Under the pieces are notes generated by a model. The model searched no databases. It saw only the letters and a program-made list of their open reading frames with translations, and was not told the DNA's origin. Made by a program: the position numbers and the translations under genes. Shown here one piece after another: positions 33,699-50,256 of a DNA stretch of 64,000 nt. Positions within the stretch are counted from its first letter, which is position 1. The number at the start of each line of letters is the position of its first letter. Origin of the DNA: Haloplasma contractile SSD-17B (GTDB lineage Bacteria > Bacillota_I > Bacilli_A > Haloplasmatales > Haloplasmataceae); NCBI RefSeq assembly GCF_000215935.2, contig NZ_AFNU02000004.1, forward strand, positions 248,001 through 312,000, given 5' to 3'.

Positions 33699-36600
33699 CT
33701 ATTTGAGTAACTTGATAATTATACCTACTTCTTTTTCTTTATTAAGAAGCCAATTATAGTTCCATAAGCGGTAAATATTCCATTCTCGTTGTTGTAAGTA
33801 TTTATAGGAATCATAATCATACTCTACAATCTTTAAGTCTTGATTTGGTTCAATCTCATTACATTCAATAACGAGTTTATACACATTTTCATAAGTATCA
33901 TATATACCAATATCGACCCTGAAACTACCAACTCTCAGATTAGGAATCACTTTATATCGATCTTTATTAATTGCTGAACTCAAAGAGTTGATTATGTCAT
34001 TCTTTAACGCTGAATAATTTACGTCCGTTACCCTTGTATCCTTTATAGTCTGTTCCTCGTCAGAAGACAGTGAATTTAGAAGGGTCATAATTTGCTCATC
34101 TTGCTCCCCGGATGTATTTAAACATTCAACATATTTTACATATTTTTTGAATAAATAAGGCCCACGATTATCCTCGTTGATATTAAAATCACTTGCCATA
34201 CAAGATTTTACTACATATATTTTTCGCTTTGCTCTTGTAATTGCAACATTTAATCGGTTTTCACCACCAGCTTGAGAGAGTGACCCAAATTGGTTAACCA
34301 TTTTACCTTTTTTATTTTTAGCATAACCAATCGAGAATACGATAATGTCACGTTCATCTCCTTGTACGTTTTCAATGTTTTTTACAAATAAACTTTCATC
34401 TCTCTCGTCTTCTTCATTCCGTCTATCTAACTCATCTTTTAATACTGGATTATCACTTGATTTTTCAATGATTAGCTCTTCAATTAAGTCTTTCTGTTTT
34501 TTGTTAAAGGTAATAATACCAATACTTTCGTTATATTTTCGTTTAATTAAAACTGATTCTACAAGTGCAACTACTTCTAGAGCTTCTTCTTTATTTTGTT
34601 GGTTAGCCCATGTCCCCGTAGTTTGAATTAATTCAATAGGGAGTTCTAATTGTTTATTCATAGATGCGAACTTTAGTTTTCCGTTGTAGTAAGCGTGACT
34701 TGAATAATCAATTAATTCCTTATATAAAGAACGATAATGACTATCAAGCATAATATTTCGATATTTTCCTTTTGATGCATCTAATAGACTTTCGGCAATT
34801 AAGTTTTCTTCTGCTTCAATATACTCGTCATCATCCTCATCAAAGTCAATATACCGCTTACTAAAACTATGGAATGGTTTAAGTTGATGCTCGTCACCGG
34901 CAACAATCATAGATTTTGCGCGGTAAATAGAAGGAATTGACTTTTCAACAAATAACTGGGATGCCTCATCAAATATAACTAAATCAAACTGATTCTCTTT
35001 AATAGGTAATACTGACGACACGACATCCGGTGTCATTAGCATAACAGGATAAATTTGTTTAAGTAGTTCGAAATGTCGATTAAACATAACCCGAATTTGT
35101 TTATGACGTTTTAAATTGGCTTCATGATTTAATTTTAATATTTCTTTGTCAAACTCAGTATTAACTTGTTTAATTCGTTCATAGTAACTATTTATGATTA
35201 TATTAATACTATGAGTTGTTTTCTCGTTGAAAGATTGTTCAACATTATTAACCATTTGATCATGAGTGTTAATGAAGTCAAAGATGGAACTAAATTGTTG
35301 CCTGAATTTTTCAGAAAAAATAGTTTCAAACGTAAACATTAAAACCTTATAGGATACCTTGTTTTCAATGATATAATTTATAAGTCTTTCTAAATCTGAC
35401 TTATTATATAAAAGGTCAGTATTAATCTTCTCAACATTAATTTCCTGATTATAATTTAAAAGGTCATTTAAATAAAGTTCTTCTTCTTCGCTTAATTTTG
35501 ACTTATAAATATGAGACGTATATTTCCTAGTGATGAAATTTAATTTCTGTACTTTATTTCTGTAGTATGCATTCTCAAATATATAATGCTTTTGTTCTTT
35601 TGTATAGTCACTCGATTTAAGAAGCGTCAGTAACTTTTTGAGATTTTTATAATTGTCATCATATTTTAAATACTCTTTGTAGAATTTATATAAGTAAGGG
35701 GTTCTATGAAGTTCCATATATTGCAATTCATAATCATTCATCTCATCATATAAAGTTGATAGCGACTTTGTGATTAAATGGTATAATTCCTCATTATAGT
35801 TAAGATTATCAGAAGAATTACAGGTATTCGCTTCAATATATCGAGAGAGTAAAACTTTCCCATCCTTCTTCATTAATTCTGCATTACTATAGTCTTTTAT
35901 ACTTCTTAATAAAAACTGATAGAACTTACCTACTCCGTTATCAAAAGCTAATAATTCTTTTTCTTTATTAAAGAAATCAAGAATGGTATTGTTAACCTGT
36001 TCAAGTGAGCTATTACCATAATACCCAGTATTATTTTCACCATTAGAAGACCTATTCCCATAATAATTATGATACAAATGTGTTTTATTATGGTTATTGT
36101 ATAAGGTCTTTAAGAAAGCAAATGTATTTAAGATTTGATTGAAGAACCCTCTCTTGTCTGCTAAATCACTGACTAGCATCGCCATAGGGGAAAGTGTACC
36201 TAGCCGGTTTATAATGACATCAATGGCTGCTCTTTTTTCTGATACAACTAAAACCGATTTATTCTGATTAATGGCATTTGCTATGATATTTGATATTACC
36301 TGTGACTTACCCGTTCCTGGTGGTCCTTGAATTACTAGGTTTTTATCAAGTGAGTTACGCACTACTATACTTTGGGTAAAATCTAAATCATTTATTTTAA
36401 GAATATCATCTTCTTTATACCCACTTATTAAATCGTAATTGTTACTTCCGGTAAATAAGTTAACACCATCACCAAGGAGCATCTTGTGAAGGAGGCCTTC
36501 TTCATCTACAGATAGATTTGTGATAATATTTTGATAGTCATTGTAAATATGTAAATTTGTAATAGGGAAAATTGCTAAAATTGGATATCCCTTTACTTTA

Positions 36601-37706
36601 TAGTTATTATTAGATACTGTCTGATCAAATTCAACTTTGCTGATTGGTAGACAAGGTTCTAACTTCATCTCCTGGTCTAATTTCAACGCCAGTCCAAGAT
36701 TATTTAATAACCGATCACACTCGATTATTTGACCGGACATTGTTTTTGTTGACAATTCAAAATTAAACCCATTTAGATTTAGGTCATGATATGCGATATA
36801 AAGCATAATGATCATAGGGTTTATAATGGCATCTTCACGTTTCAGGTGAATTTCTAATGTATGTTTCTTTGTTTCAACGATTTCAACGGGAGTCATAATT
36901 AAGGGTGCCCTTACAGAATCCTTATCTCCTATTTTACCTTCTACAAATGGAAAACCAAAAAATAGTTCATTTTTGCCTGACTCTCTTATAATTGCGCGTT
37001 GTTCCTGTCTAATCAATAAGAAGTTTCGGTAACTCTTTTCTCTTTGGTTGTTATATTTTTCAACAAGAGAGAATAAAAGTTCGTGTATATCGCTAAAATT
37101 TTTGATTAACATTGTATTTGAGAGAATATATTCAAGGTTTGTTAATAATTCCTCACTCATTAACTCCTTATACTTCGATTCCCATATAAAATCACCTTGG
37201 TTCACATCGTCTTTTAGACCAGAGAATAAGTGATTTAAAACGTTAAGACTAAGACCAAAACTTTTTGTGATGAAATGAATAAAAGGATTTAGTTTTTTCA
37301 GGTAAGGATGTTTTTCAATATTAATCCCATCATCGATACTATTATTCGTAAAGGGTTCATTCTTCTTTAGTTCTGCAGTTATATTACCAATTTTACATAA
37401 TAAATCAATTCGACGTTCGTCGTCGGTATCAAGTTCCGGAATCATGTCTAAGGTTTCACTTATCAGTCCATTACGAACTAGATCTTTTATATCGTCTAGG
37501 TCTATATAGTTCAACTCTAACTTAATTTTATCATGTTCTTTTATAAAATCGTCGAGACTTGTGTCTGTATAAAAATTACTAATTTCTGTAAACAAGTCAA
37601 TCGCACGTCGTCTACTAGTTCTACCTAAAAAAAGTGTTCGCAATCGAGAGTTCACATTTAGTAATCGTTTCTTATAGTTTTCTAAAACAAATTTAGTTTG
37701 GTCCAT
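33699..37706 (-). CDS. Large SF1 helicase with DUF4011-like N-terminus and Vsr/PD-(D/E)XK-like nuclease tail
   Basis: 1335 residues. The N-terminal ~330 residues are DUF4011-like (RAPLIMTPVEI, NELFFGFPF). Upf1/Dna2-type SF1 helicase: Walker A GPPGTGKS at 461-468, Walker B LVIFDEAS near 910, then NVQGDERDIIVFS and GGENRLNVAITRAKR (motifs V/VI). A long insertion (~550-850) of Asn/Tyr-rich sequence splits the motor. The last ~80 residues look like a Vsr/MTES_1575 nuclease: FRVDIGIYD, VIECNE, YDYDSYKYL, EWNIYRLWNYNW. Such helicase-nuclease proteins are defence candidates. It is a single gene with a strong GGGAGG site and its own terminator; no toxin, methylase or other defence gene is adjacent. 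Confidence 0.85.
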   Translation of the reverse strand: MDQTKFVLENYKKRLLNVNSRLRTLFLGRTSRRRAIDLFTEISNFYTDTSLDDFIKEHDKIKLELNYIDLDDIKDLVRNGLISETLDMIPELDTDDERRIDLLCKIGNITAELKKNEPFTNNSIDDGINIEKHPYLKKLNPFIHFITKSFGLSLNVLNHLFSGLKDDVNQGDFIWESKYKELMSEELLTNLEYILSNTMLIKNFSDIHELLFSLVEKYNNQREKSYRNFLLIRQEQRAIIRESGKNELFFGFPFVEGKIGDKDSVRAPLIMTPVEIVETKKHTLEIHLKREDAIINPMIIMLYIAYHDLNLNGFNFELSTKTMSGQIIECDRLLNNLGLALKLDQEMKLEPCLPISKVEFDQTVSNNNYKVKGYPILAIFPITNLHIYNDYQNIITNLSVDEEGLLHKMLLGDGVNLFTGSNNYDLISGYKEDDILKINDLDFTQSIVVRNSLDKNLVIQGPPGTGKSQVISNIIANAINQNKSVLVVSEKRAAIDVIINRLGTLSPMAMLVSDLADKRGFFNQILNTFAFLKTLYNNHNKTHLYHNYYGNRSSNGENNTGYYGNSSLEQVNNTILDFFNKEKELLAFDNGVGKFYQFLLRSIKDYSNAELMKKDGKVLLSRYIEANTCNSSDNLNYNEELYHLITKSLSTLYDEMNDYELQYMELHRTPYLYKFYKEYLKYDDNYKNLKKLLTLLKSSDYTKEQKHYIFENAYYRNKVQKLNFITRKYTSHIYKSKLSEEEELYLNDLLNYNQEINVEKINTDLLYNKSDLERLINYIIENKVSYKVLMFTFETIFSEKFRQQFSSIFDFINTHDQMVNNVEQSFNEKTTHSINIIINSYYERIKQVNTEFDKEILKLNHEANLKRHKQIRVMFNRHFELLKQIYPVMLMTPDVVSSVLPIKENQFDLVIFDEASQLFVEKSIPSIYRAKSMIVAGDEHQLKPFHSFSKRYIDFDEDDDEYIEAEENLIAESLLDASKGKYRNIMLDSHYRSLYKELIDYSSHAYYNGKLKFASMNKQLELPIELIQTTGTWANQQNKEEALEVVALVESVLIKRKYNESIGIITFNKKQKDLIEELIIEKSSDNPVLKDELDRRNEEDERDESLFVKNIENVQGDERDIIVFSIGYAKNKKGKMVNQFGSLSQAGGENRLNVAITRAKRKIYVVKSCMASDFNINEDNRGPYLFKKYVKYVECLNTSGEQDEQIMTLLNSLSSDEEQTIKDTRVTDVNYSALKNDIINSLSSAINKDRYKVIPNLRVGSFRVDIGIYDTYENVYKLVIECNEIEPNQDLKIVEYDYDSYKYLQQREWNIYRLWNYNWLLNKEKEVGIIIKLLK

Positions 37707-41549: not shown

Positions 41550-43610
41550 ATGAAGAGAATTATTGTTCTAGGTGGTGGATACGGTGGTATTCTCACAGCT
41601 AAGAAATTAGCTAAGAAATTAAAAAAACAAGATGTAAAAATCACCTTAATAGACAAAAATCCTTATCATACAATGTTAACAGAGTTACATGAAGTTGCTG
41701 CGGGACGTGTTCATGAAGATTCAATAAAAATTTACTTTGATCAAGTATTTGCAGGACGCAATGTTGACGTTGAGATGGATGAAATAACGAACATTGATTT
41801 TAGCAACAATATATTAACATCAGAAACAACAGAATATCCTTATGACTACTTAGTGGTGGGAACAGGATGTAAGCCAACATTCTTCGGAAACGATCAGATT
41901 AAAGAGAATGTATTTACATTATGGTCTTTAGAAGATGCAAATATTCTAAAAGAACAAATTCATACCATGTTTAAAGAAGCTGCAAAAACAAAAGATGAAG
42001 CATTACGTAAAGAATTATTATCATTTGTTGTTGTTGGTGCAGGCTTTACTGGTGTTGAAATGGCTGGAGAATTAGCTGAACAAGTTCCAGAATTATGCCA
42101 TGACTATCGTATTAATCAAGAAGAAGTTACAGTTAAACTATTAGATATGGCACCACGCGTATTACCTGTATTTCCAGAAAAACTATCTGCAAATGCAGAT
42201 AAGAAGCTACGTAAATTAGGTGTTGAAATTCATACTGGAGAACCTTGTGGAGAAATCACAAAGGAATCAATTAAGTATGGAGAACAGGTATTTAAATCAC
42301 GTACAGTGGTTTGGGTAACTGGTGTTGAAGGATCAGAGCTTATGGACAACATCGAAGGTGTAGAAACAAAAGCTCGTGGCCGTATTGCATGTAATCAATA
42401 TTTACAGGCAGAAGGTAAAGAGAATGTTTACGTTGTTGGAGATAACATTTTCTATATTCCTGAAGGTGAAGAACGTCCTGTTCCGCAAATGGTCGAAAAT
42501 GCTGAACATTCAGCTGGAACAGTTGCTAAAAATATCGCAAGCGAATTCAAAGGAAAAGAAAAAGAATCATATAATCCTAGTTTCCACGGAGCTATGGTAT
42601 GTATCGGTGGACGTAAAGGTCTAGCGCAAGTTGGATCTGGAAATATGATGTTTAACATAAAAAATAGCTTCATCGCTTTATTTATCAAGCACTTTATTAA
42701 TATCGTTTATTTCTTCCAAGTGTTAGGATGGACAAAAGTTTGGTCATACATCAAGCATGAATTCTTTAATGTTCCTAATGACCGTTCAATGGTTGGAGGA
42801 TTATTATCACGTAAGACACCGAATATCTGGACTGTACCATTACGAATATGGTTAGGGATTAGTTGGTTCTTACAAGGTCTACCAAAACTAACTGAAAAGT
42901 TAACTGGAGGATGGGCTGACTATTGTACGTTAGGTGAATTCCCACGTGATTTTGAGAATAAAGGTTTATTATGTCAGATTCAGGGTGAAGTAGTGAATGA
43001 ATATCAAACAGATGTTTCTATCGCTGCACCTGAGGATCCAGTTATAGTTGAACATAATTATGAAGATCTACATGGTTTTGAACTAGTCATGACATACATT
43101 ACAGATTTCTTTAAAGGGTTTGCACCTACAAATTATGGATGGTATGGTTCAGAGCATGATATTCCTTATATATTAGAATATTTCCAACAGTATAAATGGA
43201 TTGGTTGGCTATTCTGGTTAATCGAATGGGCATATGACTTATTCATTGTAATTGCTGATTGGTCTATGAATACGATTGTTGCTTACTTTGCTCCATTATT
43301 TGAATTAGTATTAGCAGTTGGAGAAACTGGTGTCGGAATTTTATTAATTATCGGTTTATTCACTTCAGTTGCTGCTCTAGGTTCACTAGTGCTGACAATA
43401 ATGGTACTAGTAGGAAGTTCGTTAGCATATGATGGAATTGTTTTAACGGAACTATTCTGGTACTTAGTAGGAAGTATTGCACTTCTTAACTTTGGTGGTA
43501 GTGGAAATGTTGTGTCAGTAGATTACTACATTATGCCTAAAGTTAGAGCATTCTGGCAAAAAATACCGCTTGTTAAAAAGTGGTATACTTATGGAGAAAA
43601 AATTCAGTAA
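41550..43610 (+). CDS. NDH-2 type NADH:quinone dehydrogenase fused to membrane domain (Ndh2, EET-like)
   Basis: Residues ~1-385 are a type II NADH dehydrogenase: FAD motif VLGGGYGGILTA, NADH motif VVVGAGFTGVEMAGELAE, and VYVVGDN closing the FAD site. Residues ~390-686 form an unusual membrane region: IWTVPLRIWLGISWFLQGLPK (DoxX-like), a soluble insert, and three to four C-terminal helices (LLIIGLFTSVAAL and following). Listeria Ndh2 of the flavin-based electron transfer locus has the same NDH-plus-membrane architecture. It passes NADH electrons to quinone. It is followed by a lipoprotein gene 31 bases later. GAGGAGG eight bases before the ATG. Confidence 0.88.
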   Translation: MKRIIVLGGGYGGILTAKKLAKKLKKQDVKITLIDKNPYHTMLTELHEVAAGRVHEDSIKIYFDQVFAGRNVDVEMDEITNIDFSNNILTSETTEYPYDYLVVGTGCKPTFFGNDQIKENVFTLWSLEDANILKEQIHTMFKEAAKTKDEALRKELLSFVVVGAGFTGVEMAGELAEQVPELCHDYRINQEEVTVKLLDMAPRVLPVFPEKLSANADKKLRKLGVEIHTGEPCGEITKESIKYGEQVFKSRTVVWVTGVEGSELMDNIEGVETKARGRIACNQYLQAEGKENVYVVGDNIFYIPEGEERPVPQMVENAEHSAGTVAKNIASEFKGKEKESYNPSFHGAMVCIGGRKGLAQVGSGNMMFNIKNSFIALFIKHFINIVYFFQVLGWTKVWSYIKHEFFNVPNDRSMVGGLLSRKTPNIWTVPLRIWLGISWFLQGLPKLTEKLTGGWADYCTLGEFPRDFENKGLLCQIQGEVVNEYQTDVSIAAPEDPVIVEHNYEDLHGFELVMTYITDFFKGFAPTNYGWYGSEHDIPYILEYFQQYKWIGWLFWLIEWAYDLFIVIADWSMNTIVAYFAPLFELVLAVGETGVGILLIIGLFTSVAALGSLVLTIMVLVGSSLAYDGIVLTELFWYLVGSIALLNFGGSGNVVSVDYYIMPKVRAFWQKIPLVKKWYTYGEKIQ

Positions 43611-43641
43611 TAGACTGAAAAATAGATTGGAGGCAAATAAA

Positions 43642-44619
43642 GTGAAAAAGATAATGATAATGATGTTTATTTTAATAACAGCTGTAGCCTTAACTGGGTG
43701 TGACTTCCAAAACACAACTTATTTTACAGCTCCTACACAAGAGGCTACTTATATAGATAATAGTGAGATCACATTTGATCCATATGAAGTATTAGAATTA
43801 AACTATCCTAAAGCAGGCAAACATTTTGAAGAACCATTAGAAACACCGATGTCAATTAGTGAATTCTTATTCTCTCAAGATATATTAACTGCTGATGAAA
43901 TCGATACATTTAGAGAAAATTATATTGTAGAATTAGAATACCGTTTTAATCACCATGGAGAGACGTTTGAAACTTACGAATTTACTGGTGAAGACTATAT
44001 CGCTAAATTCGAAGATCCATTTAATACATTCGGTGACACAGAAGGTGTTAAAGAATTTGAATATCGTGTTCATTTCATAGATAAAGAAACGTTGGATCGT
44101 TCAGAAATGATTAATGTAACAGGTATCATTGAATTAGAGCCAGCTCCGATTGGAGTAGTTGAGAACACCATTACAGTGGATCGCTTTGAACCGTATGATG
44201 TATTAAACAATCTATACATGCCATTTCCTGTTCCAGTACCTGAAGAAGATACTGATACTGAAGGAGAATATTATGCTTTAGAAGATTTATATACATTTGA
44301 ATTCTTAGTGAATGGCAAAGAAGATGAACAAGAATTTGTTTCGGGAGTTAAAGGTATTCATACAATTACTATATTAGCTACTGAGATTCTTAATGAATCT
44401 GATCAAGGTGCTGATGAAGACGAAGGTACCGATGATGAATCAGGCGCAAGTGATGATTCGGATTGGACATTTAACCAAGATGATAGTGGAATTACATTCT
44501 TAGGAAATACTACGAATGAAACTTCATTCGTAAAATTAGCTAATGAAGCAACATCTACTGAAGAAGAAACAGTAGCTGGTGAAACATATACAATTACATT
44601 CACAATAACAGTAAAATAA
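43642..44619 (+). CDS. Lipoprotein of unknown function, co-transcribed with NDH-2
   Basis: 325 residues from GTG 43642 (GGAGG 8 bases before). Signal peptide with lipobox ALTGC (Cys ~23), so surface-exposed and lipid-anchored. The mature part is acidic and beta-rich, with two similar segments (ITFDPYEVLELNYP and ITVDRFEPYDVLNNLY), then an Asp/Ser-rich linker (~270-290) and a beta C-terminus. No FMN_bind, haem or metal motif seen. Its operon with ndh2 suggests a role in surface electron transfer, or in anchoring; homologues not recognised. Listeria EetA/EetB do not obviously resemble it. Confidence 0.8.
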   Translation: MKKIMIMMFILITAVALTGCDFQNTTYFTAPTQEATYIDNSEITFDPYEVLELNYPKAGKHFEEPLETPMSISEFLFSQDILTADEIDTFRENYIVELEYRFNHHGETFETYEFTGEDYIAKFEDPFNTFGDTEGVKEFEYRVHFIDKETLDRSEMINVTGIIELEPAPIGVVENTITVDRFEPYDVLNNLYMPFPVPVPEEDTDTEGEYYALEDLYTFEFLVNGKEDEQEFVSGVKGIHTITILATEILNESDQGADEDEGTDDESGASDDSDWTFNQDDSGITFLGNTTNETSFVKLANEATSTEEETVAGETYTITFTITVK

Positions 44620-44724: not shown

Positions 44725-45681
44725 TCATGATGAGCGTTTTTCTAGTTGTAAAAGTAATTCTTTTAATATTTTAGTGTCAGGATGCTTGATTTTTCTTAAT
44801 GCTCTCTTGGCCTTTTGTTGGTACTTTTTATTTAGTTTCTTACTTCTATCTAAGGCCTTACTATCTTGAATAAGATCAATACACGATTTAAACTCGGATT
44901 CTGATGAATTTTCCGATAGTTCTCTAATTTTAGAACTTATTTTTTTATTTTTTAATGCATAGATAACTGGCAGTGTAATATTACCATTAAGTAAGTCCTG
45001 ACCAGCTGGCTTACCTAGTTCGCTCTCACCCTGTGTAAAGTCTAGTATGTCATCTATTATTTGAAAAGATATACCTAAATTAATTGAGTAATGATATAAA
45101 TGTTTAAGAGTTCTCTTATCTGCACCGGCAATACTGGCACCACTAATTAAAGATGCTGCTATCAGTAATGCGGTCTTATTTTTAGTCTTTTCTATATATT
45201 CTTTTAGAGAAACATCAAAGTTATATAAAAAGTCTTGTTGCATTATTTCTGAGTGACAAAGATCGGTTAATGACATATATGAATAATAATCTTCTTCAAT
45301 ATTGTATTTTGAGATTAACTCTGCACACATACTCATCACGTAGTTTCCTAACATGATTGCAGTGTATTTATCTGTTGTTATATGGAGTGACGGTATACCT
45401 CTTCTTGTTTCTGCATGATCTATTACATCATCATGTATTAATGTAGCAGTATGAACAAGCTCAAATATTGAAGCATACTTGTATATATGTGCTACTTCCT
45501 TATTACCAAAGTAACTTCCAATAATCGTAAATAAAGGGCGTAATTTTTTACCTTGGTTTATGGTTAAATCAAGAATAAATTGTTTCTGATCGTACGAAAG
45601 CAGCTCATCTTCAGTAATTATATTATATATTTCGTCATCTATTACTTGTTTATTAACATTTGCTATTTCAAATAAATCCAT
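44725..45681 (-). CDS. hepT: Polyprenyl diphosphate synthase, HepT/DmkB-like
   Basis: Trans-prenyltransferase making the long isoprenoid chain of menaquinone or demethylmenaquinone. 318 residues. First Asp-rich motif DDVIDHAETRRG, second DDILDF, GKPAGQDLLNGNITLPV, and GKKLRP substrate loop, all present. ATG 45681 chosen over GTG 45690 because AGG is eight bases upstream. Directly downstream of a HepS-like gene (28 bases). In the Listeria electron transfer locus the DmkB protein has this role. Chain length cannot be read. Confidence 0.94.
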   Translation of the reverse strand: MDLFEIANVNKQVIDDEIYNIITEDELLSYDQKQFILDLTINQGKKLRPLFTIIGSYFGNKEVAHIYKYASIFELVHTATLIHDDVIDHAETRRGIPSLHITTDKYTAIMLGNYVMSMCAELISKYNIEEDYYSYMSLTDLCHSEIMQQDFLYNFDVSLKEYIEKTKNKTALLIAASLISGASIAGADKRTLKHLYHYSINLGISFQIIDDILDFTQGESELGKPAGQDLLNGNITLPVIYALKNKKISSKIRELSENSSESEFKSCIDLIQDSKALDRSKKLNKKYQQKAKRALRKIKHPDTKILKELLLQLEKRSS

Positions 45682-45709
45682 TTTATTCACCTAACTCATA
45701 ATAGCTATA

Positions 45710-46111
45710 TTAAATCGTATTCATTAGCGCCTTTAATAAATGGTCAGTATGCTTTTGATTTAATCGATTAAATATAACTTTTTTTGTATTTTGAGTAAAA
45801 ACGTCTAAAAGTTCGAACTTTTTATTTTTATATAATATTTCAGTGCAATAACTACTAATGTAATCTCCTAATAAGATATAATACTGTAAATCGCTACTAT
45901 CATATTTCGCCATTTTATGACAATCAAGGGCTGTATAAAACAATGTGTAGATTGCAGCGATTATTTCCTTATAATGATCGGAAATGTGCTTAGAATTTAA
46001 ATGGTGACAAACCTCATGATATTTTGCTATATTAATTTGAATTTCAACAGGTGTGTACTGTTTTGTGTACTGGATAATCATATTTATATATTTATTATCG
46101 TGAGAAATCAT
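45710..46111 (-). CDS. hepS: Heptaprenyl diphosphate synthase component I-like (HepS), short
   Basis: 133 residues, about half the size of B. subtilis HepS (~251). The region ALDCHKMAKYDSSDLQYYILLGDYISS parallels the HepS signature (LDTHD..., LAGDYYS). It lies directly before hepT, as hepS does in Bacillus (with menG between), and should be the non-catalytic subunit that sets chain length. The identification rests on this short motif, size of the helical bundle, and position. AAGGAG precedes ATG 46111 by eight bases. Confidence 0.62.
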   Translation of the reverse strand: MISHDNKYINMIIQYTKQYTPVEIQINIAKYHEVCHHLNSKHISDHYKEIIAAIYTLFYTALDCHKMAKYDSSDLQYYILLGDYISSYCTEILYKNKKFELLDVFTQNTKKVIFNRLNQKHTDHLLKALMNTI

Positions 46112-46347
46112 GATAAATACTCCTTATTTAATATAGTAATATAGTAATTTTCACACAATTAATTATAATTGTCAAATGTTATATTTTCCTGCTATCAAAA
46201 TGTATAATCGACAGCAAAATACACATAATAACAGTTTGTGAATTTTTTTCGAAAATGTATTGAGTTTTGTGAAAAATTGAGTTATAATAAATTTGCAACG
46301 AAAGATATAAGCACACTTTGCAATAAAAAATAAAGGGAGGACTAAGA
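46112..46347. promoter_or_regulatory. Divergent control region, pplA-like promoter
   Basis: TTGAGT (46260-46265), 17-base spacer, TATAAT (46283-46288) is a good promoter for the pplA-like gene. Two TTGTGAA Rex half-sites (46236-46242 and 46267-46273), one inside the spacer, lie 31 bases apart. Redox control is suggested but half-sites alone are weak evidence. Confidence 0.5.
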
Positions 46348-48039
46348 ATGAAAAAGTTATTATCAATTTTCGCAATAGCTATGTTATCATTAGCATTAGC
46401 CGCTTGTGGTGACAATACTGATGAAACAACAGAAGCTACAGAAGCAACTGAGGCAACAACTGATACATCAGACTCAGGAGATACAACTGAGGCTGGAGAC
46501 TTCGAAAACATCGCAGATGGATATTACTTCGCTGCTGACGATCGTCAAACTGAAACTGGTGAGACTTACAGATATTGGGTAACTGCCGAGGTTAAAGACG
46601 GTGAGTTAACTGACCTTACATGGGATGCATACCACATTGATGGTGGAGTAAGCAAACTTAAGGGTCAAAGTAAGTTCGTAGGATCTTATAATGGTCTTTA
46701 TGGTATGGATAAATATGGAAATGAATATGGTAAATGGTACGTTCAAGCATCACGTGCAATTAACTATATTTTAGAAAACCAAGATATGGATCTTACTTTT
46801 GATGCAGATGGATATTCAGATGAGATAGGTGGAATCACAATTCATTATGTTGAATTAATTGACTTATTATCAGAAGCATTATCAAATGATGCAGTTGAAA
46901 AAGGAATCTACAACGATGGATACTACTATGTTGAAGAAGGAACAACAATGTTAACAACTGTTGTAGTAAACGGTAGAATTGTATTAGCCGACTTTAATGC
47001 AATTAATGCTAAAGAGTATACAAATGCTGATGGAGAAACAGAAATTGGATTAACTAAAGATTCTTTATTAGAGAATTATGGAATGACTCCAACTAACCCT
47101 TGGTACGTTCAAGCTCAACAAATCGAGAATTATGTAATGGAAAATCAAAATCTTGATGTTGTACTTAAAGACGATACAAGAACTGACGATATATCAGATA
47201 TATCAATCAAGATGCCAGGATTTATAGGAGCTTTTGATGCATTCATCGAAGAAAGTTCAGACTATGCTCAATATGTTGACGGTAAATATTTTGCTGCTGC
47301 TGAAGAGTTTGGTAATGGATATAAGTATTATGTAATACTTGAAATCGAAGACGGACTATTAGTTGATGCTGAATTAAATGCTTATGCTCAAGACGGAGAT
47401 AAAAATAAATGTTTAGGTGAAACTAAGTATGACTGTTCACTAGCAGGGAACTATGGAATGAATACAGACAATCCTTGGTATGAACAAGCAGACGCTATTA
47501 CAGCGTACGCAATTAAAACTCAAAAAGCTGACATAAATTATAACGATGATAACGGACATACAGATGAAATTGCTGATGTTACAATTCACGTTAATGAATT
47601 CTTTGAATTAGCTAAAAAAGCATTAAAAGCTGGTCCAGTAATGGCACCACGTGGAGCTGAATTAGTTGATGGATTCTACTTCGTTACTGATGAAGATACT
47701 GATGCAGACAAATATAACATGGGTACATTCATTGTTGTTGACAATGCAATTGTATTAGCTGATTTAAATGCTGCTCATCCAAAAACAGTTGATGGAACTG
47801 ACTATGTTACTAAGGATGCAATGGGTGCTGGATATGGAATGAATCCGGACAATCCATGGTTCGAGCAAGTACAAAAAATCGAACAAGAAATCTTAGATAC
47901 ACAAGCTAGCTTCACATTAAATACAACTGACGCTGATGGACATCAAGATACTTTATCTGATGTTTCAATCAAGGTTAATGGTCAACTTGGAATATTTGAC
48001 TTATTTATAACAGAAGCAACACCAACACCAGCTAGCTAA
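46348..48039 (+). CDS. pplA: Four-repeat PplA-like FMN-binding lipoprotein
   Basis: 563 residues with lipobox ALAAC (Cys20) and a Thr/Glu-rich spacer. Four tandem repeats of ~125 residues follow (about 52-178, 186-303, 305-428, 436-555). Each has a DG.YF.. strand, a YGM...NPW(Y/F).Q motif (from ~118, 244, 369, 496) and a final D-x-(I/L)-x-x-(I/V)-(T/S)-I motif at D158-T164, D280-S286, D406-T412 and D534-S540, which align with the DxxSGAT(S/T) flavinylation site of FMN_bind domains. Repeats 1 and 3 have Thr, 2 and 4 Ser. It likely shuttles electrons outside the cell, with an ApbE gene nearby. Confidence 0.78.
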   Translation: MKKLLSIFAIAMLSLALAACGDNTDETTEATEATEATTDTSDSGDTTEAGDFENIADGYYFAADDRQTETGETYRYWVTAEVKDGELTDLTWDAYHIDGGVSKLKGQSKFVGSYNGLYGMDKYGNEYGKWYVQASRAINYILENQDMDLTFDADGYSDEIGGITIHYVELIDLLSEALSNDAVEKGIYNDGYYYVEEGTTMLTTVVVNGRIVLADFNAINAKEYTNADGETEIGLTKDSLLENYGMTPTNPWYVQAQQIENYVMENQNLDVVLKDDTRTDDISDISIKMPGFIGAFDAFIEESSDYAQYVDGKYFAAAEEFGNGYKYYVILEIEDGLLVDAELNAYAQDGDKNKCLGETKYDCSLAGNYGMNTDNPWYEQADAITAYAIKTQKADINYNDDNGHTDEIADVTIHVNEFFELAKKALKAGPVMAPRGAELVDGFYFVTDEDTDADKYNMGTFIVVDNAIVLADLNAAHPKTVDGTDYVTKDAMGAGYGMNPDNPWFEQVQKIEQEILDTQASFTLNTTDADGHQDTLSDVSIKVNGQLGIFDLFITEATPTPAS

Positions 48040-48049
48040 TATTAAAATT

Positions 48050-48090
48050 AAAATAACCTATCTGACATGTTCAGATAGGTTATTTTTTTA
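48050..48090 (+). terminator. pplA-like terminator
   Basis: AATAACCTATCTGA pairs with TTCAGATAGGTTATT around CATG, followed by T7. Confidence 0.95.
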
Positions 48091-48951: not shown

Positions 48952-50256
48952 TTAACCCTTTCTTTTCACGACAATGAACCCGACTGACCCAGCAGCAATT
49001 ACACCAACTAATATAGAAGTAATAATTGTAAAGTTATACGATTCCTCATCACTCTTTTCTTCTTGTTCATCAGGATTTTCAATTTCTCCGTTATCGTCAT
49101 TGTCGTTGTCTATAACATTTCCATCTTTATCATAAAGTTTAAAATCATTATTAGTTATGTCTAATTTATACTTATCAATCATTCCCGAGGAAACATAAAC
49201 CTCGTTATCATACGTTACAAAAGCTGCTTCAACATCGTCCAATGATTCTACTAACTCTAGACCATCCCTGAGACCTAGCGCTAAAACTGATGTTGATAGT
49301 CCATCTGCTGCCATTGAATTATCAGTAATGATTGAAACAAGTTCAACCTCATTATCAACAGGAAAACCGGTGTATGGGTTAAGTATATGGTGATATACAT
49401 TCCCTGTATCAGGGTCTGTTAAGCAACTCCCACCCCAGTCCTTCCAACACCGTTCATAAGTACCAGAGCTCACAATTGTTTTATCAGAAACATATACATC
49501 TGCATAGGATGAAGATGCTTCAGGATTTAACCACATATCATACTCAGGATTTTTTAGACCTATGATCCATTCATCAGAACCTGTGTAATTTGCTTTATAA
49601 CGGTCCCCTAATAGTAGGAGATTCCCACCTAAATTAATGATACCGTGTTCATATCCTTTTGATTTTAGATATTCAGTCAATTTGTCTGCGGCAAATCCTT
49701 TTGCAATTGCGCCTAAATCAATAATCATACCTTCCTTAGGTAGATATACTTCATTTGTTTCTTCATCCATTTCTATAAGTCTATAATCAATTAATGGCTT
49801 GATAGTTTGTAACTGAGCCTCAGTAGGAACAGATGGTTCTTCATATGATCCCCAGGTTTCAATCAAAGGACCTATTGTTGGTTCAAACATACCATCTGTC
49901 ATTTTGGCATATTCAATCGCTTCCCTAATTACATTAAAGAGATCCTCAGATACCACCACGGGCTCTATCCCAGCTTTTTGATTGAGTAGATAGAGTTCAC
50001 TAGAACTTTCAGAACGACTAAACGTATCTTCAATGTCTATAATAATGCTTTCTATATCACTCCATACATCTTCAGGAACGCTCTTGTCATCCCAAATTTT
50101 AAACGTTAAATATGTATCGAAATAATAAAAGTCACGATTTGATTTGACTAGGTCATCACTACTATTGTTAGCTTCTATTTTTGTGGGAGATACAATAAGT
50201 AATAGTGTTCCAGTTATTAATACGATAAACATTAGAAATAGTTGTCTTTTTACCAT
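48952..50256 (-). CDS. apbE: ApbE: FAD:protein FMN transferase, membrane anchored (FmnB-like)
   Basis: Mg-dependent enzyme that attaches FMN to Thr/Ser of target flavoproteins, here probably the pplA-like lipoprotein. 434 residues. ApbE motifs: DLGAIAKGFAADKL, GIINLGGNLLLLG and ADGLSTSVLALG. N-terminal signal peptide or anchor (~8-25) without a lipobox, then an acidic linker (~385-405) and a C-terminal helix (ILVGVIAAGSVGFIVV) with a basic tail. Most family members lack a C-terminal anchor; this one is tethered outside, near its substrate. GGAGG precedes ATG 50256. Confidence 0.93.
   Translation of the reverse strand: MVKRQLFLMFIVLITGTLLLIVSPTKIEANNSSDDLVKSNRDFYYFDTYLTFKIWDDKSVPEDVWSDIESIIIDIEDTFSRSESSSELYLLNQKAGIEPVVVSEDLFNVIREAIEYAKMTDGMFEPTIGPLIETWGSYEEPSVPTEAQLQTIKPLIDYRLIEMDEETNEVYLPKEGMIIDLGAIAKGFAADKLTEYLKSKGYEHGIINLGGNLLLLGDRYKANYTGSDEWIIGLKNPEYDMWLNPEASSSYADVYVSDKTIVSSGTYERCWKDWGGSCLTDPDTGNVYHHILNPYTGFPVDNEVELVSIITDNSMAADGLSTSVLALGLRDGLELVESLDDVEAAFVTYDNEVYVSSGMIDKYKLDITNNDFKLYDKDGNVIDNDNDDNGEIENPDEQEEKSDEESYNFTIITSILVGVIAAGSVGFIVVKRKG

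What the first reader, a model, noticed from the sequence alone, without database searches (positions are those of the whole stretch)
46348..48039. Four-domain PplA with non-canonical flavin attachment motif
Four repeats pair as 1/3 (Thr acceptor) and 2/4 (Ser acceptor), suggesting a doubled two-domain ancestor. The usual DxxSGAT is replaced by DE(I)xx(I/V)(T/S)I. This could be a new ApbE target motif, or a domain that has lost flavin.
Basis: seen in the sequence. Interest (0 to 1): 0.65.

Follow-up and report, generated by a model that had tools for sequence, protein, structure and literature searches.

The report
Four-flavin lipoprotein for extracellular electron transfer
This gene encodes a secreted lipoprotein with four flavin-carrying domains that probably passes electrons out of the cell; it is a four-domain member of a known protein kind, and its odd-looking flavin attachment sequence is mostly the normal form for its relatives.

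Summary
The gene at 46348-48039 is real: a lipoprotein with four tandem repeats and candidate flavin acceptors exactly at Thr164, Ser286, Thr412 and Ser540. Repeats 1/3 and 2/4 do pair, so a doubled two-domain ancestor is supported; the 7 other genomes of the order have two-domain homologues at the same locus. The repeats miss Pfam FMN_bind, but profiles and structure comparison link them to it (2KZX, 3O6U, 8P2A, 8P2B), with the acceptor column aligned. The "non-canonical motif" is mostly not new. In related domains Val, not Ala, usually precedes the acceptor, and in this order the Gly two before it is often Ser, Asp, Glu or Thr. The Asp and the Ser/Thr acceptor are kept in all 17 readable motifs, which argues against loss of flavin. 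An FmnB-like apbE lies next door, as in the 6 relatives whose assembly reaches that far. Each relative has a single apbE and also ordinary GAT-type FMN_bind proteins, so one ApbE probably accepts both forms. Published work already describes proteins with 2 or 4 FMN-bind2 domains. Best reading: a four-FMN, PplA-like electron carrier. Flavinylation itself is untested. Asp at the Gly position is the one modest novelty.

The parts
46348..48039 (+). PplA-like lipoprotein, four tandem flavin-binding (FMN_bind-like) domains
   Evidence: ORF; 2KZX match E=1.6e-17; domain profile hits four times
46348..46407 (+). lipoprotein signal peptide, lipobox LAAC, Cys20
   Evidence: sequence; lipoprotein-type N-terminal matches
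46516..46890 (+). repeat 1 (first-type domain), motif DEIGGITI, acceptor Thr164 (codon 46837-46839)
46915..47256 (+). repeat 2 (second-type domain), motif DDISDISI, acceptor Ser286 (codon 47203-47205)
47278..47634 (+). repeat 3 (first-type domain), motif DEIADVTI, acceptor Thr412 (codon 47581-47583); predicted beta3-alpha2 topology
47668..48018 (+). repeat 4 (second-type domain), motif DTLSDVSI, acceptor Ser540 (codon 47965-47967)
48050..48086 (.). intrinsic terminator-like hairpin, 16 pairs, after pplA
48952..50256 (-). ApbE (FAD:protein FMN transferase), FmnB-like, with an apparent C-terminal transmembrane segment; the FmnB catalytic residues Ser/Arg/His/Asp are present
   Evidence: PF02424 E=3.4e-72; best structure 7ESA, E=9.8e-55
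41550..43610 (+). Ndh2-like NADH dehydrogenase with C-terminal membrane (DoxX-like) part
   Evidence: PF07992 E=2.1e-39; synteny
43570..44619 (+). lipoprotein of unknown fold next to ndh2 (likely start about 43648); homologue detected by tblastn in 5 of 7 relatives
44725..45690 (-). polyprenyl diphosphate synthase (HepT-like), quinone side-chain synthesis
   Evidence: PF00348 E=2.7e-58; TIGR02748 237.6 bits, below its 456.55 cut-off
45710..46111 (-). small protein, conserved partner of the polyprenyl synthase in all 7 relatives (possible HepS-like subunit)
   Evidence: synteny; no family hit

Best explanation
A four-domain, PplA-like, membrane-anchored lipoprotein made by doubling a two-domain ancestor. 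The neighbouring FmnB-like ApbE most likely attaches one FMN to each of Thr164, Ser286, Thr412 and Ser540. Electrons from NADH pass through the Ndh2-like dehydrogenase and membrane quinone to these flavins and on to extracellular acceptors. The 'non-canonical' motif is the form this domain subfamily normally has (D-x-x-x-[G/S/D/..]-[V/I/A]-[S/T]), relaxed further at the Gly position in this order. Shown here: repeats, homology to FMN_bind, acceptor alignment and conservation, synteny. Inferred: flavin attachment, electron path, pairing into two pseudo-symmetric two-flavin units.
For: Solved relative 2KZX with DAISGATI, E=1.6e-17. Profile A2 hits 3O6U (FMN_bind) at E=1.5e-4 with the motif columns aligned. 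hhalign against this genome's own FMN_bind proteins 96.6 %, DEIADVTI over DYIAGATI. The top structure match is FMN_bind (3O6U, Z 10.6, 2.2 A over 96 residues); 8P2A, 2KZX and 8P2B are also in the top five. Asp and Ser/Thr kept in 17/17 motifs in the order. All 8 genomes of the order have the gene, with ndh2-hepT/S-pplA conserved in all 7 relatives and one apbE in each of the 7. The local ApbE is closest to 7ESA among solved structures, which I take to be Listeria FmnB (the PDB listing names it only FAD:protein FMN transferase). FmnB is reported to modify PplA at residues 143 and 265 (PMC8906456). Multi-FMN-bind2 proteins often have 2 or 4 domains (PMC10979944/PMC11334425).
Against: No Pfam FMN_bind hit at E<=1. 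The NCBIfam PplA model scores 32.8 against a cut-off of 325, over residues 2-100 only. The structure model is weak (pLDDT 55.9). Gly to Asp two before the acceptor was not among the tested changes in the papers read. No biochemistry exists for this protein.
Confidence: 0.74

Rival explanations
1. Partial occupancy: repeat 1 (GGIT, Gly kept) is flavinylated, while the Asp-bearing repeats 2-4 are poor substrates and serve partly as structural spacers.
For: In a tested substrate Gly-to-Ala and Ala-to-Val each lowered flavinylation to about 50 % (PMC12052999), and Asp is a harsher change. Acceptor loss does happen in this fold: domains of G058, G074 and G082 have Asp, His or Tyr there, and the second domain of G005 stops before the motif.
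Against: All three Asp-bearing repeats keep both the leading Asp and the Ser/Thr, as do 17/17 in the order. Asp at this position also occurs with a kept acceptor in G118 and G097. Where domains degenerate in relatives, the acceptor itself is lost.
Confidence: 0.16
2. A new ApbE target motif with a matching specialised ApbE: the local enzyme has diverged to read the Asp-bearing motif, and the second genomic ApbE serves the standard FMN_bind proteins. (Compatible with four attached flavins.)
For: This genome has two apbE genes where each of 7 relatives has one. The local enzyme alone among the 13 aligned has an insert with two Cys (CWKDWGGSC) beside the active site. The genome's PF04205 proteins all keep Ala-Thr at the end of the motif.
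Against: Relatives with one ApbE carry both DxxSSVS-type domains and DxxSGAT proteins, so one enzyme seems enough. The insert could be neutral.
Confidence: 0.13
3. The repeats have lost flavin and are a structural or binding scaffold.
For: Sequence too far from Pfam FMN_bind to be recognised.
Against: Acceptor and Asp kept in every readable domain of the order while neighbouring positions vary; conserved placement beside apbE and ndh2.
Confidence: 0.05

Closest known systems
Multi-FMN-bind2 proteins (mSystems 2024, PMC11334425)
   Same: Flavinylated proteins with an even domain number (often 2 or 4), explained by pairing into two-flavin units; the modelled example is from an Erysipelotrichaceae bacterium.
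   Different: Domains here are about 115-125 aa against about 160 aa quoted; motif relaxed at the Gly position; here linked to an Ndh2-type locus.
Listeria monocytogenes PplA (with FmnB, Ndh2)
   Same: Lipoprotein beside ndh2 and an FmnB-like apbE; two covalent FMN per PplA in Listeria.
   Different: Four domains instead of two; far below the NCBIfam PplA cut-off; the Listeria sequence itself was not aligned here.
2KZX, C. thermocellum A3DHT5 (NMR structure)
   Same: Closest solved sequence to repeat 3.
   Different: 131-residue solved chain with one domain and the standard DAISGATI.
CbFMN4 / SaFMN3 (PMC10339131)
   Same: Four or three covalent FMN domains in one extracellular protein; structural match to 8P2A/8P2B.
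   Different: Near-identical repeats (>80 %) with DxxxGAT motifs and flexible linkers; here repeats are 28-44 % identical and of two alternating types.

Membership tests
FMN_bind (Pfam PF04205 superfamily) | Match to the Pfam profile above its cut-off | tested here: not met
   No PF04205 hit at E<=1; relatives 2KZX, L021 and L024 do match above the cut-off
FMN_bind (Pfam PF04205 superfamily) | Homology by profile-profile comparison and fold | tested here: met
   hhalign 96.6 %; 3O6U E=1.5e-4; Z 10.6 to 3O6U, with a weak model
FMN_bind / ApbE substrate | Motif D-x-x-[S/T]-G-A-[S/T] | tested here: not met
   All four have Asp and Ser/Thr, but none has G-A; repeat 1 keeps G
FMN_bind / ApbE substrate | Covalent FMN on the acceptor | not testable with these tools
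   needs protein
PplA (NCBIfam NF041941) | Score over curated cut-off 325 | tested here: not met
   32.8 bits
Gram-positive flavin-based EET locus | ndh2, polyprenyl synthase, PplA-type lipoprotein and apbE together | tested here: met
   EetB-type (PF07456), NusG_II (PF07009) and UbiA (PF01040) genes lie elsewhere in the genome
FMN-bind2 multi-domain proteins | Even number of domains | tested here: met
   four domains of two alternating types
FMN-bind2 multi-domain proteins | About 160-aa domain with insertions beta1/beta2 and beta3/alpha1, face-to-face sheet pairing | tested here: inconclusive
   Window domains 114-125 aa; second domains of six relatives about 165-190 aa; two-domain model failed (pLDDT 37.6)

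The most novel reading that the evidence does not exclude
In this lineage ApbE recognition has shifted: the usually conserved Gly of the target motif can be Asp (or Ser, Glu, Thr), and a divergent local ApbE with a two-Cys insert near its active site has specialised on the four-flavin protein while a second ApbE serves the other targets.
Probability: 0.13. Interest if true: 0.5.

Novelty: new member of a known kind. Interest (0 to 1): 0.3.

Why it matters
It shows that searches for flavinylated electron carriers that rely on Pfam FMN_bind or on a strict SGAT motif miss members of this lineage, and it offers natural variants to test how loose ApbE recognition is. A four-flavin doubled unit is also a neat case for studying electron relay along a flavin chain.

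Tried and rejected
The single protein and the broad alignment A2 gave no named relatives in genome contigs; A3 found only one genome, named Turicibacter sp. UBA7094. I first took the f11/g16 genomes for Listeria; and their NF041941 scores (at most 61.8 of 325) speak against that, so no true Listeria PplA was aligned here and its residues 143/265 rest on PMC8906456. NF041941 over 392 genomes found no member over the cut-off. Structure of the tandem pair failed (pLDDT 37.6), so domain packing is untested. Thr/Ser pairing as evidence of doubling was rejected, because relatives mix both. Whether the doubling is recent is unresolved: repeats 1 and 3 as sisters is neither shown nor rejected (p-AU 0.242). 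The minus-strand ORF at 46179-46511 overlaps the gene start and has no support. PHROGs hits cover only the N-terminal signal region.

Full report
What is there. The ORF 46348-48039 (563 aa) has a good ribosome-binding site, a lipoprotein signal (LAAC) and a terminator-like hairpin after it. A small seed profile finds four domains; their motifs are DEIGGITI, DDISDISI, DEIADVTI and DTLSDVSI, with acceptors T164, S286, T412 and S540. Pairwise scores against shuffled sequence give Z 24.4 (1/3) and 27.9 (2/4), against 6.2-17.6 for the other pairs.

Family. Pfam gives no FMN_bind hit and the NCBIfam PplA model stays far below its cut-off (32.8 of 325). But repeat 3 matches the solved C. thermocellum protein 2KZX at E=1.6e-17, whose domain does hit PF04205. 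A profile of the domain reaches the FMN_bind protein 3O6U at E=1.5e-4 with motif columns aligned, and profile-profile comparison with the genome's own FMN_bind proteins gives 96.6 % with DEIADVTI over DYIAGATI. A low-confidence model (pLDDT 55.9) has the order beta-beta-beta-alpha-alpha described for such domains (PMC10339131). Its best structural match is 3O6U (Z 10.6); 8P2A, 2KZX and 8P2B are also among the top five. Unrelated folds score Z 5-7 in the same list, so the 3O6U match carries the weight, together with the sequence evidence.

Relatives. All 8 genomes held for the order have the gene. The other seven have two-domain versions; only this genome has four. Domain trees put repeats 2 and 4 with relatives' second domains (100/98) and repeats 1 and 3 with first domains (89/92). 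Grouping repeats 1 and 2 is rejected (p-AU 0.001); whether 1 and 3 are sisters is open. So a doubled two-domain ancestor is supported, its date is not. A more distant genome (G104) has six domains in one 835-aa frame, again alternating.

The motif. Across the order 17 of 17 readable motifs keep the leading Asp and a Ser/Thr acceptor, while two before the acceptor there is Ser 8, Gly 4, Asp 3, Glu 1, Thr 1, and one before it Val 12, Ala 3, Ile 2. In 83 domains from the rest of the class Val is also the commonest residue before the acceptor (58), but Gly is usual two before (68). So Val/Ile is normal for this domain type, and the loosened Gly position is a feature of the order. Asp there recurs in G118 and G097. 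Where domains degenerate in other lineages the acceptor itself goes (G058, G074, G082), and in G005 the second domain ends before the motif. This pattern argues that the window's acceptors are under selection.

The enzyme. An FmnB-like ApbE lies convergent to the gene. Among relatives the same neighbour is seen in the 6 whose contig extends that far; in G001 the contig ends after pplA and its single apbE is on another contig. Each of the 7 relatives has one apbE, yet each carries at least one FMN_bind protein ending in GAT as well as the DxxSSVS-type domains, so one enzyme probably handles both. A few PF04205 proteins of the order are also loose at the Gly position (for example DAVSQAT in this genome). 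The window genome has two apbE genes, and the local one has an insert with two Cys between the conserved SGTYER and YHHIL that none of the 12 other aligned ApbEs has. The FmnB catalytic residues named in PMC8906456 (S257, R262, H273, D301) map by spacing onto residues present in the window enzyme (alignment with 7ESA; that 7ESA is FmnB is my own knowledge).

Setting and mechanism. ndh2, polyprenyl synthase with a small partner, pplA and (where assembled) apbE, then aspartase/fumarase-type lyase, malic enzyme and fumarase genes are kept in order. A gene for EetB-type PF07456, one for NusG_II (PF07009, which I recall as the EetA domain) and one for UbiA (PF01040) lie elsewhere in the genome (PF07456 as EetB from PMC9973259). 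By analogy with Listeria: FAD is exported, ApbE puts FMN on the four acceptors, and electrons go NADH - Ndh2 - quinone - flavins - outside acceptor. Flavin attachment and electron flow are inferred, not shown.

What is known. Multi-flavinylated proteins with up to 13 predicted sites are described (PMC8238504), and proteins with 2 or 4 FMN-bind2 domains forming two-flavin units are described (PMC10979944, PMC11334425). The window protein fits that kind by number and alternation of domains; domain size and packing were not settled. Mutational data on the motif (Gly-to-Ala and Ala-to-Val about 50 %, PMC12052999) do not cover Asp.

Verdict. A real and probably functional four-flavin PplA-like protein; a new member of a known kind, with a modest twist in the motif.

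Noticed in passing
L079:8618-11122 (G104): Six-domain version (835-aa frame, motifs DNVAGVTI/DNVANVSI alternating, last DNVTGVSI) directly after what looks like an RNF operon, suggesting an RNF-fed flavin chain.
   Followed up: partly
window 48952-50256: Local ApbE has a roughly 8-residue insert with two Cys (CWKDWGGSC) beside the active site, absent from the 12 other ApbEs aligned.
   Followed up: partly
L084, L085, L100 (G058, G082, G074): Two-domain homologues in which the acceptor Ser/Thr is replaced by Asp, His or Tyr in at least one domain; apparent loss of flavin.
   Followed up: partly
L075:9376-10233 (G005): Homologue whose second domain stops just before the flavin motif, followed by a hairpin and T-run; a one-flavin natural variant.
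   Followed up: yes
window 43570-44619: Lipoprotein with no family or structure match, detected after ndh2 in 5 of 7 relatives at 21-27 % identity; a possible extra electron-transfer component.
   Followed up: partly
window 33699-37706: 1335-aa helicase/nuclease-like protein (DUF4011, AAA_11/AAA_12, MTES_1575 endonuclease domain), possible defence gene; not tested against PADLOC.
   Followed up: no
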